From positions 1 to 51,245 of the forward strand of contig JAITWO010000024.1 in assembly GCA_031285205.1 (NCBI GenBank): a DNA stretch of 51,245 nucleotides, read 5' to 3'. Positions 2,908-21,645 of this stretch are shown one piece after another. The translations under genes and the position numbers were made by a program. The notes under the pieces are model-generated. The model was not told where the DNA came from, ran no database searches, and saw nothing but the letters and a program-made list of their open reading frames with translations. The stretch comes from Methanomassiliicoccaceae archaeon. Lineage in GTDB: Archaea; Thermoplasmatota; Thermoplasmata; Methanomassiliicoccales; Methanomethylophilaceae. The stretch's first letter is position 1. Each line of letters begins with the position of its first letter.

Positions 2908-3270
2908 TTAGAGATCATTCAGGATCTTTTCACAAGCGGCCTTCAGCACTGGCACATCCTCCGTGACGATCGCCCATACTGTATTCAGTTTGATCACACC
3001 ATAGCCGTGGTTTATGATGTTCCTAGTCCCGATTATGTCTCTCCAGATTATTTCCGGATGTTTATAGGTCAGCTCTTCAGACAGGTCTCCTGCGGTCTCG
3101 CCTATCTGAGCGATACAGAATGCACAATCTCGCTGAAAGTGTCTGTCCTCCATGAATTTGATCTCGTCCTTACCGTAATAGTCCATGTTCCCTGCGATCT
3201 CATCGCAGTAGTAGATGATAGTCTCTATCAGAAGGCGATCGTTGCCTTTCGTGTTGCGCTCACGCTTCAT
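2908..3270 (-). CDS. hepT: HepT-like ribonuclease toxin (DUF86)
   Basis: A 120-residue all-helical HepT/DUF86 protein, the toxin of MNT/HepT systems. The catalytic RX4HXY motif is present as R83-NIIN-H88-G-Y90. Family proteins are HEPN RNases that cleave RNA, often tRNA, and are silenced when the partner nucleotidyltransferase AMPylates the tyrosine of this motif. Its ATG (3270) lies inside the end of the MNT gene, giving an 11-base overlap and implying translational coupling. The tail (NTVWAIVTEDVPVLKAACEKIL) is a complete family C-terminus, so this copy looks intact, unlike the second copy at 11514-11841. The stop is TAA. Confidence 0.88.
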   Translation of the reverse strand: MKRERNTKGNDRLLIETIIYYCDEIAGNMDYYGKDEIKFMEDRHFQRDCAFCIAQIGETAGDLSEELTYKHPEIIWRDIIGTRNIINHGYGVIKLNTVWAIVTEDVPVLKAACEKILNDL

Positions 3271-3568
3271 ATAAGATCACGCTCTCCCTGAGTATCTTGT
3301 TCAGGAATTCATGACCGATAGAATCTACGGTGACAAGGTCGATCTCATTGCCTACCGCATCTTTTAGGTCCATGAAGAATCCGCCTAACTTGAATCCGCG
3401 TATCTTCCCTAATTCTATGCAGAAATCATAATCGCTGCCCTCATCGTGATCTCCTCTGGCGACCGATCCGAAAAGGTATATCTTTCCACATCCGTACTTC
3501 TCCGCCACCGGGGCGACCAAGAGTTTCAGCTCATCGATCGTGTGTATCCTATGAGCTGTTGGTGTCAT
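3260..3568 (-). CDS. mntA: MNT-type nucleotidyltransferase antitoxin
   Basis: Minimal nucleotidyltransferase that pairs with the downstream HepT gene. The active-site signature GSX10DXD is clear: 'LFGSVARGDHDEGSDYDF', giving G34-S35, D46 and D48 counted from the ATG at 3568. Family enzymes AMPylate HepT to inactivate it. An in-frame ATG at 3589 would add seven residues, but the TATA-like AGTTTTAATC (3591-3600, minus strand) is centred 27 bases before 3568, fitting a leaderless start at 3568. The same arrangement is preserved in the second copy at 11838-12146, to which this protein is strongly similar through its whole length. Confidence 0.88.
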   Translation of the reverse strand: MTPTAHRIHTIDELKLLVAPVAEKYGCGKIYLFGSVARGDHDEGSDYDFCIELGKIRGFKLGGFFMDLKDAVGNEIDLVTVDSIGHEFLNKILRESVILYEA

Positions 3569-3590
3569 GCTTGTGTATTGGCCACACATT

Positions 3591-3600
3591 GATTAAAACT
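3591..3600 (-). promoter_or_regulatory. TATA-like box of the first MNT/HepT module
   Basis: Minus-strand AGTTTTAATC is centred 27 bases before the ATG at 3568. The same sequence at the same distance precedes the second MNT gene (about 12168-12177), so the promoter was duplicated with the module. Confidence 0.5.
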
Positions 3601-3803
3601 TTCCGCAGACGTCTTCAGTGCGGACATAAGATAAAGGATCGTCGGTGGACCTCCTGCCCATTGTGTTCTCACCTTCTCTTGAAGGGCAGCCCCGATCAAA
3701 GACGCGGCCGTCCAAGACAGGAGTAGCATGGGTTGCGGATATGATCCGATGTCGGTCTCGCAAAGACGAGAATGAAATACTGCGCATAACATTCATATGC
3801 CGT

Positions 3804-11513: not shown

Positions 11514-11841
11514 TTATTTCAGAATTTTCTTACAGATGCCCCTCAGTTCTGGCGTATATTCCGTTATGACGCTCCACTATACGGTCGTGTTCAGCGTTTC
11601 GTATCGGTGAGAGACGATGTTTCTCATACCGACTATTTCCTTCCGCCTTATCTCCGGATACTTCCCGACAAGTTCGGCAGACAGATTTCCCGCGGACTCA
11701 CCTATCTGACCGATATAGAAAGAAGACACATCTTGAAAGAATTCGTTGTCCATTATCTCGCCCTCGTCATCGGCGAAATGCTCCATTGCCTTTTCGATCT
11801 TGTCGCAATAAAGGATTATCCTGTTCGTCTGGTGAAATCAT
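11514..11841 (-). pseudogene. hepT: Broken HepT-like gene (second MNT/HepT module)
   Basis: Remnant of a HepT toxin gene downstream of the second MNT gene. The expected start overlaps the MNT stop as ATGA (11841), but that frame gives no HepT similarity beyond the first residues; the HepT-like frame (RIILYCDKIEKAMEHF and on) is shifted, so a small insertion or deletion lies near 11815-11825. The core is well kept, including RNIVSHRY, the RX4HXY catalytic motif. At 11577-11579 a TAG interrupts the frame; beyond it the sequence continues as WSVITEYTPELRGICKKILK, matching the tail of the intact copy (VWAIVTEDVPVLKAACEKIL). Either the gene is dead, or the TAG is read as pyrrolysine; the frameshift favours a dead gene. 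An internal ATG at 11786 could make a shortened protein. Confidence 0.7.
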
Positions 11842-12146
11842 TCGCCATACAGCAATACACTTTCATTCATTATCCTGCTCAGGAAGTCAGGTTTACATGA
11901 TTCTGTGTCAACCAGATCTGTCTCCTTCCCGACCGCTTCCATGAGGTCCATGTAGAACCCCCCGAGCTCAATACCGCGTATCTCTCCCAGTTCTATGCAG
12001 AAGTCATAATCGCTGTCATCTTCGTGGTCCCCTCTGGCGACGGAGCCGAAGAGAAACACTTTGCCTACGCCGTACTTCTTCGCCACCGGCGCCACCAAGA
12101 GCTTCAGTTCATCAATCGTGTGGAACTTCTGAGCCGATGATGTCAT
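11838..12146 (-). CDS. mntA: MNT-type nucleotidyltransferase, second copy
   Basis: Paralogue of the nucleotidyltransferase at 3260-3568, similar along its full length (HTIDELKLLVAPVA, KKYGVGKVFLFGS, then ARGDHEDDSDYDFCIEL). The GSX10DXD active site is intact. The start is taken at 12146 because the minus-strand TATA-like TTTTAATC (about 12168-12177) is 27 bases upstream; an in-frame ATG at 12167 exists, as in copy 1. Its partner HepT downstream is broken, so this antitoxin may be an orphan that could still act on the intact HepT at 2908-3270. The two modules sit about 8.5 kb apart in direct orientation and could recombine. Confidence 0.85.
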   Translation of the reverse strand: MTSSAQKFHTIDELKLLVAPVAKKYGVGKVFLFGSVARGDHEDDSDYDFCIELGEIRGIELGGFYMDLMEAVGKETDLVDTESCKPDFLSRIMNESVLLYGE

Positions 12147-12167
12147 GCTTGCGTATTCACCATGCAT

Positions 12168-12177
12168 TGATTAAAAC
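12168..12177 (-). promoter_or_regulatory. TATA-like box of the second MNT gene
   Basis: Minus-strand AGTTTTAATC centred about 27 bases before the ATG at 12146, identical to the element of copy 1. Confidence 0.5.
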
Positions 12178-12330
12178 TTTCTGCGCAATTTGTCGGAAAA
12201 CCCAAGAAAGGAGTAAGTCAGAGGGCTTGAACGTATCCGGATCCCTGATCCATCGTCGGTTGCCCCTCATATCTGCACATAACCTAAGAACGAGATGCCA
12301 TCATCATTTCCTTATTCTGACCTTGATCGT

Positions 12331-13396: not shown

Positions 13397-14212
13397 TCAC
13401 ATAGGGTTCTTGAGTAATTCTTTTGCGATCTCACGAAGTTCTTTTATCTTCTTGGATGTCAGATCCAAAAGTGCCATCATTTTTTTAACCCGATTCTCAC
13501 TCAGACCTTCCGTGCATTTGTATAATTGTTCATATCCGCAGCTGCGCAATTTATTGATCATCTCAAAGTCGCTGCTCAATACGGAACGGAAATGATAAGA
13601 GAGAACATAATTGTCCGCCAGGACGTCGCTTGCGACAACAACCTTTCTCTCAAACATATCATGCTCTTTTTCTATTATATCGGCAAAATTTTTCGCCGTA
13701 TCTTCATCGATCTCAAACGTGACCATCTTTTCGAAGGAACCAACATCAAAGACCTTTTTCATTTCAGGCCGGTCATCAATGACAGCAAGTGAAAAATTCT
13801 GTGCAATGCTTCCTCTGATGTACTTCTCATGGAACGTGGATATCGCTTCATGGTAGATCTGTTCCTTTAAGAAATCTGCCTCCGTCACGTTTTTCGGTTT
13901 GTGTTTCAATAGAATATGTTCGTTATCGTCCTCATTCTGACTGTCGCCTATGCTGAGATGGATCTCAAAAGGAGAATTAAGGATCATCTCTGCCATTACT
14001 CTCTCGCCGCCTCTTAATTTTCCGTGAAGCGGCACCCGTTTGATGGTCACGCTTGCAACCTGTAATATGTCATTGACATATAGTGCAAAACCTTTGGACG
14101 GTATGTTGACAACAACGATCTTATTTTTGCCATGTACGTACGCCCATGTCTTTTTCAACAACCCTTTCATATTTTTATCGTAGTGTTGCGCCCAATCATC
14201 CACGCTGCCCAT
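13397..14212 (-). CDS. Hypothetical protein, AT-rich accessory gene
   Basis: A 271-residue soluble protein I do not recognise. From the ATG at 14212 it begins MGSVDDWAQHYDKNMKGLLK; there is a charged C-terminal helical region (LDLTSKKIKELREIAKELLK). No cysteine cluster, nucleotide-binding loop, membrane segment or signal peptide is visible. Codon use is more AT-rich than in core genes. The upstream ATG at 14251 is possible, but a minus-strand TATA-like AAAATATAAG (14237-14247) lies about 28 bases before 14212. It diverges from the DUF4143 ATPase gene across a 300-base region that holds a long hairpin and an inverted repeat, so the two may share regulation. Confidence 0.6.
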   Translation of the reverse strand: MGSVDDWAQHYDKNMKGLLKKTWAYVHGKNKIVVVNIPSKGFALYVNDILQVASVTIKRVPLHGKLRGGERVMAEMILNSPFEIHLSIGDSQNEDDNEHILLKHKPKNVTEADFLKEQIYHEAISTFHEKYIRGSIAQNFSLAVIDDRPEMKKVFDVGSFEKMVTFEIDEDTAKNFADIIEKEHDMFERKVVVASDVLADNYVLSYHFRSVLSSDFEMINKLRSCGYEQLYKCTEGLSENRVKKMMALLDLTSKKIKELREIAKELLKNPM

Positions 14213-14364
14213 GACCCTATATAATATGCAGAGGCGCTTATATTTTTGCACACAGTAATATTTTTACAAAGACATAACACGATCGATGATAACGATCGCT
14301 CAACAGACAGATGGAAAGTGGGCTTGAAGGGATAAAGATCCAGCTCGTCTGATCGATCCTCAAA

Positions 14365-18892: not shown

Positions 18893-20218
18893 ATGGATAC
18901 CATGGAAAAAGGCCGCATGCTGGAACGTCTCGGTTTTTCGTCAGACGACGATCTGTTCTCCGATGTCCCGAATGATGTGAGGACTGAGCTGAACATCGGC
19001 AAAGGCATGTCAGAGATGGACGCCGTCCATAAGATAGAAAGGATGCTCTCCAAGAACGTGACGGTCCGCGATATGCCCTGCTTCATGGGGATGGGAGCGT
19101 ATAGTCACTACATTCCGGCAGCAGTTGACCACATAACCGGAATTTCAGAGTTCTATACGTCGTACACACCATACCAGCCGGAGATGAGCCAGGGGATGCT
19201 GCAGGCGCTCTTCGAATATCAGAGTGTGGTATGTGAGCTAACCGGGATGGATGCGGCCAACTCATCAATGTATGATTGCTCGACCGCACTGGGTGAAGCG
19301 GCAAGGATGTGCGGCCGCATATCCAAAGGCAAGGTCTTCCTGATACCGGGGGCGCTCAGTTCCGAAAGATATGCGGTGCTGAATAATTACCTTACCGGCA
19401 CAGGCATAAGGATCTCAACATACGGGTTCGACAAGGACACGGGGTCATTGATACCGGACGACATATCGTCGGCGGTCAGGAGGGGGGATGTATGCGGCAT
19501 ATACACAGAGATACCTAACCTGTTCGGCTGTCTGGATAAGAATGTCGCGTCAATAAAACCGCTGATAGGGAATGTTCCGTTGGTGATGGGCGTGAACCCA
19601 CTGTGCATGAGCATTGTCAGATCCCCAGGGGACATGGGTGCGGACATAGCGATCGGCGAGGGGCAGCCGCTGGGCACAAGGATGGGATTCGGGTCACCGT
19701 TGCTGGGGATGTTCGCATGCCGGCAGGAGCATATCAGGAAGATGCCTGGCCGCATCATCGGAATGACCAATGATTCCGACGGCAACAGGGCGTTCTGCAT
19801 GACCCTGCAGACCAGGGAACAGCACATACGGCGGAGCTCGGCGACATCCAACATATGCACGAATGAAGCACTCACCGCAGTGGCGGCGGCCGTTCACGTT
19901 GTGACGTTAGGTGCGGAGGGAATGATCAGTGTCGCAAAGAAGAACATGGAGCGCGCAAGGACGCTCATGTCGCTGCTGTCAAAGGTGAAGGGCGTTGAGA
20001 TCGTGTTCAAGAACACGCATTTCAACGAGTTCCCCATAAGATTGTCAAAAGACGTTGCGACCGTCAACAGAGAGCTTCTGAAAAGAGGGGTGATGGGAGG
20101 CGTGCCGCTGAAAGGCCATGTCAGGGGGATGGACGACTGCATGCTCATCGCGACCACAGAGATGCATTCTGACGATGACCACAAAAGATTGGTCAACGGG
20201 TTGAGGGAGGTGCTCTGA
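18893..20218 (+). CDS. gcvPA: Glycine dehydrogenase (decarboxylating) subunit 1
   Basis: A 441-residue N-terminal-half subunit of the glycine cleavage P-protein. Hallmarks include 'MPCFMGMGAYSHYIPAAVDHI', 'FYTSYTPYQPEMSQGMLQAL', 'EYQSVVCELTGMDAANSSMYD' and 'GEGQPLGTRMGFGSP'. With the product of gcvPB it forms the PLP enzyme that decarboxylates glycine and loads the aminomethyl group on lipoyl-GcvH. The start could be the ATG at 18893 or, nine bases later, at 18902, which stands 26 bases from a TATA-like AAATAAATA (18871-18879). gcvPB begins at the last base of this gene. The T and H proteins are not in the window. Confidence 0.95.
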   Translation: MDTMEKGRMLERLGFSSDDDLFSDVPNDVRTELNIGKGMSEMDAVHKIERMLSKNVTVRDMPCFMGMGAYSHYIPAAVDHITGISEFYTSYTPYQPEMSQGMLQALFEYQSVVCELTGMDAANSSMYDCSTALGEAARMCGRISKGKVFLIPGALSSERYAVLNNYLTGTGIRISTYGFDKDTGSLIPDDISSAVRRGDVCGIYTEIPNLFGCLDKNVASIKPLIGNVPLVMGVNPLCMSIVRSPGDMGADIAIGEGQPLGTRMGFGSPLLGMFACRQEHIRKMPGRIIGMTNDSDGNRAFCMTLQTREQHIRRSSATSNICTNEALTAVAAAVHVVTLGAEGMISVAKKNMERARTLMSLLSKVKGVEIVFKNTHFNEFPIRLSKDVATVNRELLKRGVMGGVPLKGHVRGMDDCMLIATTEMHSDDDHKRLVNGLREVL

Positions 20219-21645
20219 TGTTCAAACAATCACGGAGTCCCGTCAGAGTGATCACTGATGCGCCGGAGGCGGACGTTGGGAGCACGGACGTTCCAGATGA
20301 GCTGAAAAGGAAGTCGCTGTCGCTGCCGGACATCCCGGAGAGCGAAGCAGTCCGTCATTACACAAGATTGGCATCAATGAACTTCGGCGTCGACAACGGA
20401 CCGTACCCGTTGGGGTCGTGCACAATGAAGTACAACCCGAAGTATGCGGACCGTATAGCTTCGCTGCCCTCGGCAACAGACATACATCCGTATCAGGACG
20501 ACAGCACGGTCCAGGGGACACTGGAGATGATGTACGACATGGAGCGCAAGCTCGCATCGATATCCGGGATGGATGCGGTGACATTGCAGCCGGCCGCCGG
20601 CGCACACGGGGAATTCACCGCGATGCTTATGGTCAGGGCATATCACCGTTCCAACGGCGAAGAGAGGGATGAGGTGATCGTCCCGGACAGCGCCCATGGA
20701 ACGAATCCCGCAAGCGCGGCGATGGCAGGGTATAAGGTAATCGAGATACCCTCCGCATCCGACGGGTCCGTGGATACGGATGCGCTCAAGGCGGCTGTCT
20801 CAAAGAGGACGGCAGCATTCATGCTGACCAACCCGAACACGTTGGGCATATTCGATAAGAACATCAAAGAGATCGCGAAAGCGGTCCACAACGCGGGCGC
20901 GCTGATGTATTACGACGGCGCTAACCTGAACGCCATAATGGGCATATCTTCACCAGGAAAAATGAACTTCGACATAGTCCACTTCAACATTCACAAAACA
21001 TTCGCGGCGCCGCACGGTGGCGGCGGCCCCGGATCAGGGCCGGTGGGCGTGAAGAAGAAGCTCATACCATTCTTACCGTCACCGATAATAAAGAAAGCGG
21101 ACGGGAAGTTCGTTCTCGAGTATGATAACAAGGAGAGCATAGGGAAGGTCAGGGCATTCCACGGGAACATAAACGTGGTACTAAGAGGATACGCATACAT
21201 ACTCAGGATGGGCTCGGAGGGGTTGAAGGACGCGACCGTCAGGGCCGTGCTGAACTCCAACTATCTGAAAGAGCTGCTGAAGGACGGGTACGACATACCG
21301 TACGGCGACCTCAAGAAGCACGAGTTCGTCGCATCCGCATCACGTCTAAAAAAAGAGAAAGGAATAAAGGCATCAGACGTCGCCAAGCGCATGATCGATT
21401 TCGGGATACATCCTCCGACGGTATATTTCCCGATGCTGGTCGACGAAGCGTTGATGTTCGAGCCCACCGAGGACTGTTCCAAGGATGAACTGGACAGAAT
21501 GGCGGAGGCCCTCAACGACATCGCGAAAGAGGACCGGGAGACAGTGTTGAGGGCGCCGCGCAATTCGTCAGTTTCCAGAGTGGATGAGACGAAGGCAGCG
21601 AAAGATATGATATTCAGCACGCGTTACCTTAGAAGGAGGCAATGA
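20218..21645 (+). CDS. gcvPB: Glycine dehydrogenase (decarboxylating) subunit 2
   Basis: A 475-residue catalytic subunit of the two-part P-protein. The PLP-binding lysine is K260 in HFNIHKTFAAPHGGGGPG, and PLYPLGSCTMKYNPK-type sequence (PYPLGSCTMKYNPK) is at about residues 62-75, with 'PAAGAHGEFTAMLM' and 'SAHGTNPASAAMAGY' further on. Full family length. It shares one base with the stop of gcvPA (TGATG), so translation is tightly coupled and equal amounts are expected. The dTMP kinase gene starts two bases after its stop. Confidence 0.95.
   Translation: MFKQSRSPVRVITDAPEADVGSTDVPDELKRKSLSLPDIPESEAVRHYTRLASMNFGVDNGPYPLGSCTMKYNPKYADRIASLPSATDIHPYQDDSTVQGTLEMMYDMERKLASISGMDAVTLQPAAGAHGEFTAMLMVRAYHRSNGEERDEVIVPDSAHGTNPASAAMAGYKVIEIPSASDGSVDTDALKAAVSKRTAAFMLTNPNTLGIFDKNIKEIAKAVHNAGALMYYDGANLNAIMGISSPGKMNFDIVHFNIHKTFAAPHGGGGPGSGPVGVKKKLIPFLPSPIIKKADGKFVLEYDNKESIGKVRAFHGNINVVLRGYAYILRMGSEGLKDATVRAVLNSNYLKELLKDGYDIPYGDLKKHEFVASASRLKKEKGIKASDVAKRMIDFGIHPPTVYFPMLVDEALMFEPTEDCSKDELDRMAEALNDIAKEDRETVLRAPRNSSVSRVDETKAAKDMIFSTRYLRRRQ

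What the first reader, a model, noticed from the sequence alone, without database searches (positions are those of the whole stretch)
11577..11579. In-frame TAG near the end of a HepT gene: decay or pyrrolysine
The TAG replaces the residue before a conserved Trp; the sequence after it (WSVITEYTPELRGICKKIL) is still in frame and closely follows the intact paralogue. In a pyrrolysine-using archaeon such a codon might be partly read through, giving a full-length C-terminus. The separate frameshift near 11820 argues that the gene is already dead.
Basis: partly seen in the sequence, partly recalled or inferred. Interest (0 to 1): 0.5.

Follow-up and report, generated by a model that had tools for sequence, protein, structure and literature searches.

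The report
Decaying toxin gene with amber codon
A methanogen that can read the TAG stop codon as the amino acid pyrrolysine carries a toxin gene with a TAG near its end, but the gene is already out of frame near its start, so this is most likely an ordinary decaying toxin gene beside a still intact antitoxin gene.

Summary
On the minus strand a HepT frame (11837..11517) is interrupted by TAG at 11579-11577 and continues in frame as WSVITEYTPELRGICKKILK to TAA at 11516-11514. The upstream frameshift is real too: in 37 of 39 MNT-HepT pairs read from this archaeal family the HepT frame stands at +1 to the MNT stop; the two exceptions are this locus and one other in the same genome, each consistent with loss of one nucleotide. 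The genome has the pyrrolysine system (pylT, S, B, C, D; two MtmB genes with in-frame TAG), and TAG ends only 5 of 252 other sampled coding-like frames. So the TAG alone need not be disabling; decoding as pyrrolysine is plausible but nothing supports it for this gene. The frameshift leaves the full frame without a start codon, so decay is the best reading, helped by a lost near-invariant Trp and by three of four HepT copies in this genome being broken. The body still looks coding, so decay is recent. MNT is intact. No relative has TAG at this site (0 of 39 other rows). Ordinary; low interest.

The parts
11514..11837 (-). HepT (HEPN RNase toxin) frame without a start codon for its full length; ends at TAA 11516-11514
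   Evidence: (PF01934, 52.2 bits)
11577..11579 (-). in-frame TAG (residue 87 of the frame), just before the conserved Trp; in the last helix of the model (residues 84-106)
11816..11848 (-). usual HepT start ATG (11848-11846) and the 10-codon frame it opens, closed by TAA 11818-11816; the change of phase to the HepT body lies within this stretch
11601..11624 (-). RX4HXY motif of HepT, intact (R72, H77, Y79)
   Evidence: motif from PMC7641770 (passages)
11643..11645 (-). Arg codon where 39 of 39 other rows of the 40-row alignment have Trp (residue 65)
11838..12167 (-). MNT antitoxin gene, intact; longest frame from ATG 12167, likely real (leaderless) start ATG 12146; GSX10DXD motif at 12047-12003
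   Evidence: the start choice is inference from likeness to the paralogous operon
12169..12180 (-). AAAGTTTTAATC, promoter-like element also found before the paralogous operon (3602-3591)
   Evidence: function inferred
2908..3270 (-). intact HepT paralogue in the same window
3260..3589 (-). intact MNT paralogue in the same window

Best explanation
A HEPN/MNT (type VII) toxin-antitoxin operon whose toxin gene hepT is decaying while the antitoxin gene mnt stays intact. Shown: the hepT body is out of phase with its usual start, so the full frame has no ATG, GTG or TTG; it carries a TAG that would remove nearly all of the last helix if read as stop; it has Arg at a near-invariant Trp. Inferred: the frameshift inactivates the toxin, and the TAG is a second change, tolerated because the gene was already dead or because this lineage can read TAG as pyrrolysine, which would make TAG milder here than TAA or TGA. 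The order of the changes is unknown. MNT would still be made and could act on the intact HepT paralogue (inference).
For: Junction: 37 of 39 distinct MNT-HepT pairs have the HepT frame at +1 to the MNT stop; only this locus and L003 (same genome) are in phase 0 (53 loci scanned, 8 gave no motif row, 6 of 46 rows had no MNT, 1 duplicate). The usual ATG closes after 10 codons. The first in-frame ATG, 11786, drops 17 residues, most of helix 1 (residues 2-21 of the model). Arg for Trp at residue 65 against 39 of 39 other rows and two further conserved sites changed. Three of four HepT matches in this genome are broken: this one, L003 (phase), L002 (5'-truncated, no MNT). Internal stops are common in the family: 14 of 111 match rows, 10 of the 14 with at least one TGA or TAA. 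TAG is 18 of 39 single-step stop changes.
Against: The body still looks coding: differences to the paralogue by codon position are 0.36, 0.34, 0.50; the codon score is positive before and after the TAG (0.194 and 0.152 per codon; MNT 0.289, HepT paralogue 0.249); R, H, Y of the motif are intact; there is no TAA or TGA in 107 codons. The jackknife profile score (1.655) is 1.1 SD below the mean of 40 rows, fifth lowest, and six other rows also breach three conserved sites; the left-out row L056 also has Arg at that Trp. So decay is recent or mild. An assembly error at the frameshift cannot be excluded (MAG, no reads).
Confidence: 0.85

Rival explanations
1. The TAG is a sense codon for pyrrolysine and hepT is functional; the apparent frameshift is a sequencing or assembly error.
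For: pylTSBCD on contig C16; two MtmB genes with one TAG each; TAG ends 5 of 252 sampled frames against 14% of stop triplets counted in all frames (1765 of 12407); homology goes on after the TAG to a TAA. For relatives, 16 further candidate Pyl proteins in 'Ca. M. alvus' (PMC4153887, section 12 read) and 46 genes with in-frame amber codons in ISO4-H5 (PMC5011839, passages).
Against: The stretch has no long homopolymer (by eye); a second HepT of the genome shows the same kind of phase change; the Trp loss is independent of both; in 280,026 sampled bases no TAG-ended coding-like frame other than the two MtmB genes has a coding-like extension (five others: extensions of 17, 0, 4, 5 and 109 codons, scores -2.7 to 0.4 and -7.0 for the longest).
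Confidence: 0.09
2. A truncated HepT is made from the internal ATG 11786, ending at the TAG or, by pyrrolysine, at the TAA, perhaps as a non-toxic partner of MNT.
For: The in-frame ATG exists (69 residues to the TAG); an ATG at the same distance before the QIG motif occurs in several intact relatives.
Against: In those relatives it is an internal residue behind an ordinary start; most of helix 1 would be missing, and the last helix too if TAG stops.
Confidence: 0.04
3. The HepT frame, which is in phase with MNT, is made as an MNT-HepT fusion by reading through the MNT TGA, or by programmed frameshifting after the usual ATG.
For: Both phase-changed loci of this genome are in phase with the MNT stop.
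Against: TGA is the main stop here (198 of 254 frames); no slippery heptamer was seen at either junction (by eye); the codons after the ATG in both loci resemble ordinary HepT N-termini (by eye), so the phase change is secondary; loss of one nucleotide always gives this phase.
Confidence: 0.02

Closest known systems
HEPN/MNT (HepT/MntA) toxin-antitoxin system (PMC7641770, passages read)
   Same: MNT gene upstream of hepT with overlapping ends, GSX10DXD in MNT, RX4HXY in HepT, HepT fold (PDB ranks 1-24 are HepT/HEPN-MNT entries)
   Different: hepT has no start codon in phase and carries a TAG
Candidate Pyl-containing proteins of 'Ca. Methanomethylophilus alvus' (PMC4153887, section 12 read) and ISO4-H5 (PMC5011839, passages read)
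   Same: in-frame TAG in a non-methyltransferase gene of a pyl-bearing archaeon of the Methanomassiliicoccales
   Different: this gene is also out of frame at its start; no further TAG gene with a coding-like extension, MtmB apart, was seen in the sampled 280,026 of 1,231,104 bases
Broken toxin genes in toxin-antitoxin operons (general knowledge)
   Same: toxin broken, antitoxin kept
   Different: nothing notable

Membership tests
HepT-like family (PF01934) | profile match over the curated cut-off | tested here: met
   52.2 bits vs 23.5 with TAG read as X; 34.9 bits for the 69 residues before the TAG. The stricter NCBIfam model NF047751 gives 27.5 vs cut-off 60, not met
HepT-like family (PF01934) | RX4HXY motif | tested here: met
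   R72, H77, Y79
HepT-like family (PF01934) | HEPN fold | tested here: met
   AlphaFold2 model of the frame with TAG read as Lys, mean pLDDT 88.4; PDB ranks 1-24 are HepT/HEPN-MNT chains, best E 0.014, TM about 0.6-0.7, none at E 0.001 or better
functional HEPN/MNT toxin-antitoxin pair | toxin frame with a start codon in phase | tested here: not met
functional HEPN/MNT toxin-antitoxin pair | MNT with GSX10DXD | tested here: met
   12047-12003; PF18765 and PF01909 over cut-off; NCBIfam NF047752 51.4 vs cut-off 60, below
functional HEPN/MNT toxin-antitoxin pair | RNase toxicity neutralised by AMP transfer | not testable with these tools
   needs bench work
pyrrolysine-containing protein | host has pylT, S, B, C, D | tested here: met
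   PylS, B, C, D over NCBIfam cut-offs; tRNA-like stretch with CTA anticodon 3 nt before pylS (not found by ARAGORN or Rfam)
pyrrolysine-containing protein | homology continues after the TAG | tested here: met
pyrrolysine-containing protein | TAG conserved at the site in relatives | tested here: not met
   0 of 39 other aligned rows
pyrrolysine-containing protein | pyrrolysine shown in the protein | not testable with these tools
   needs mass spectrometry

The most novel reading that the evidence does not exclude
This archaeon reads the TAG as pyrrolysine, so that the C-terminal helix of a HepT product is made only when pyrrolysine is at hand, and the product is started by a non-standard route (internal ATG, near-cognate start or change of frame): a toxin or toxin fragment whose completeness depends on the pyrrolysine supply.
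Probability: 0.03. Interest if true: 0.65.

Novelty: new member of a known kind. Interest (0 to 1): 0.15.

Why it matters
Little on its own. It shows why an in-frame TAG in a pyl-bearing archaeon can be scored neither as a disabling lesion nor as a pyrrolysine site by itself: other lesions and the state of relatives have to be read too. It also adds a case of hepT decay beside an intact antitoxin gene. If the TAG were translated, it would be a rare case of pyrrolysine in a toxin.

Tried and rejected
RNA structure after the TAG: folds no better than shuffles (z 1.06 for 80 nt, -0.53 for 100 nt); a 100-nt stretch just after the TAG of an own MtmB, taken as a yardstick, gave -0.43, so the test says nothing either way. 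pylT: ARAGORN, Rfam at gathering scores and patterns built on a recalled pylT anticodon loop missed it (a looser pattern too); reading the gap before pylS showed it, and its anticodon loop differs from the one recalled. Viral contigs: no relative of the MNT. PADLOC: the MNT proteins match the candidate defence models PDC-S09, the HepT proteins match nothing. Synteny: the flanking 5'-nucleotidase has one full relative in seven same-genus genomes (G027) and a 40-residue piece at a contig end in G031; neither MNT, HepT, the OmdA-like protein nor the 13397-14251 protein is encoded in the stretches held beside them, so the site could not be compared. PDB by sequence with the intact paralogue: none at E 0.1. 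dN/dS was not computed: the best other matches are about 45% identical and third positions differ at about half the sites. Missing PylS in G026 was considered as support for plain nonsense in its TAG-bearing HepT (L015), but G026 holds an MtmB fragment and G028 an MtmB with TAG without a PylS match, so absence from these MAGs is weak evidence.

Full report
Observation. On the minus strand the frame 11837..11517 reads as HepT with one TAG at 11579-11577 and ends at TAA 11516-11514. PF01934 matches at 52.2 bits with the TAG read as X and at 34.9 bits for the 69 residues before it. An intact paralogous MNT-HepT pair lies at 3589-2908. The MNT proteins of the two pairs are 67% identical, the HepT proteins 42%.

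Frameshift. I read the junction of MNT and HepT in 53 loci; 45 gave 46 HepT rows by motif, 8 gave none; 40 rows had an MNT, one of them a duplicate. Of the 39 distinct pairs, 37 have the HepT frame at +1 to the MNT stop and 2 are in phase 0: this locus (132 nt from the stop to the QIG motif) and L003 on contig C3 of the same genome (138 nt). Among the 37 the distance is 133 or 136 in 26, and 130 to 154 in all but L031, where the MNT-like motif ended 316 nt away, so that row is doubtful. From the usual ATG (11848) this locus gives a 10-residue peptide. The HepT frame itself opens after the MNT TGA and has no ATG, GTG or TTG before ATG 11786. In both phase-changed loci the codons after the ATG resemble ordinary HepT N-termini (by eye), so the phase change is secondary and consistent with loss of one nucleotide (inference).

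Further signs. In a jackknife profile of 40 HepT rows (5 of 45 left out before the count as partial, decayed or at contig ends: L002, L028, L035, L056, L058) this gene breaks 3 of 21 conserved sites, among them a Trp found in all 39 other rows; the left-out row L056 also has Arg there. Its score, 1.655, is fifth lowest (mean 1.863, SD 0.191), and six other rows also have three breaches, so this sign is mild. Four HepT matches exist in this genome: one intact, two with changed phase, one 5'-truncated without MNT. In 102 genomes of the family there are 111 match rows, some being two pieces of one gene; 14 hold internal stops, 4 with TAG alone and 10 with at least one TGA or TAA.

Against decay. 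The body keeps the codon-position pattern of a protein gene (differences to the paralogue 0.36, 0.34, 0.50), a positive codon score on both sides of the TAG, the RX4HXY motif, and no TAA or TGA inside. The decay is therefore recent, or the frameshift is an error of the assembly; I cannot test the latter.

Pyrrolysine background. Contig C16 holds a tRNA-like stretch with anticodon CTA (20196-20263), pylS from 20267, then pylB, pylC and pylD, all four proteins over the NCBIfam cut-offs, and two MtmB genes with one TAG each. In 280,026 sampled bases, 7 of 254 coding-like frames end in TAG; two are the MtmB genes; the other five have extensions of 17, 0, 4, 5 and 109 codons with scores of -2.7, 0, 0.4, -0.3 and -7.0, that is, not coding-like. 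TAG is thus rare as a stop (5 of 252; 1765 of 12407 stop triplets in all frames of a 183,867-base sample are TAG) yet still used as one. Relatives: G026 16 of 165, G025 2 of 77, G029 7 of 97 including one MtmB. Among same-genus HepT genes, L018b (G025) and L054 (G029) have TAG as their final stop with unrelated tails. PMC4153887 (section 12 read) gives 1.6% TAG stops and 16 further candidate Pyl proteins for 'Ca. M. alvus'; PMC5011839 (passages) gives 46 genes with in-frame amber codons in ISO4-H5. A 2025 report of archaea that use all TAG codons as pyrrolysine is recalled only; one search did not list it.

The site. The 39 other rows have L, I, V, Q, T, M or W at the TAG position. In the model of the frame with TAG read as Lys (22-row alignment, mean pLDDT 88.4) residue 87 lies in the last helix, 84-106; a stop there removes nearly all of it, and a start at 11786 removes most of helix 1. 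PDB ranks 1-24 are HepT/HEPN-MNT chains, the best at E 0.014 and none at 0.001 or better. The one other same-genus HepT open apart from a TAG, L015 in G026, has the TAG at an acidic, variable site and breaks two residues that are invariant in the other rows.

Organism. PylS without an N-terminal part (277 residues), the pyl operon and the relatives point to the Methanomassiliicoccales (inference). The contig G029:C10 of a same-genus genome has the length (19104) of a public record, also found by the HepT search, titled Methanomassiliicoccaceae archaeon isolate Emb289P3bin41; that such records are termite-gut MAGs is recalled.

Verdict. A recently decaying hepT beside an intact mnt. The TAG may be decoded as pyrrolysine in part, but that would not restore the gene.

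Noticed in passing
L114 (G029:C2:2400-5000), L110 (G027:C164:4000-7000), L112 (G028:C59:5800-7077): MtmB genes of three same-genus genomes have Lys (AAG, AAA, AAG) exactly where the pyrrolysine TAG stands in other MtmB genes; in G027 this copy lies beside pylS, in G029 a TAG-bearing copy lies 2.7 kb away. Lysine is the precursor of pyrrolysine. A non-pyrrolysine MtmB homolog is the subject of PMC13044021 (search listing only); whether it has Lys there was not looked up.
   Followed up: partly
L111 (G031:C101:8400-10200): A diverged MtmB-like frame without the pyrrolysine motif region.
   Followed up: partly
L041:13577-14905 (G000:C16): A second PylC-like protein, 245.7 bits against a cut-off of 248.3, about 9 kb from the pyl operon (frame taken with upstream TAG codons read as Lys).
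   Followed up: no
L003:1050-1740 (G000:C3): A second MNT-HepT pair of this genome with the same kind of phase change at the start of hepT and an otherwise open frame.
   Followed up: yes
L015 (G026:C51:7529-7837): HepT with one in-frame TAG at an acidic, variable site, otherwise open from its ATG.
   Followed up: partly
L002 (G000:C66:14258-14470): 5'-truncated HepT remnant without MNT, shortly downstream of what looks like a tRNA gene (by eye).
   Followed up: no
window 12169-12180 and 3591-3602: The same promoter-like element AAAGTTTTAATC stands before both MNT genes, 22 nt before an ATG that is likely the real (leaderless) start.
   Followed up: partly
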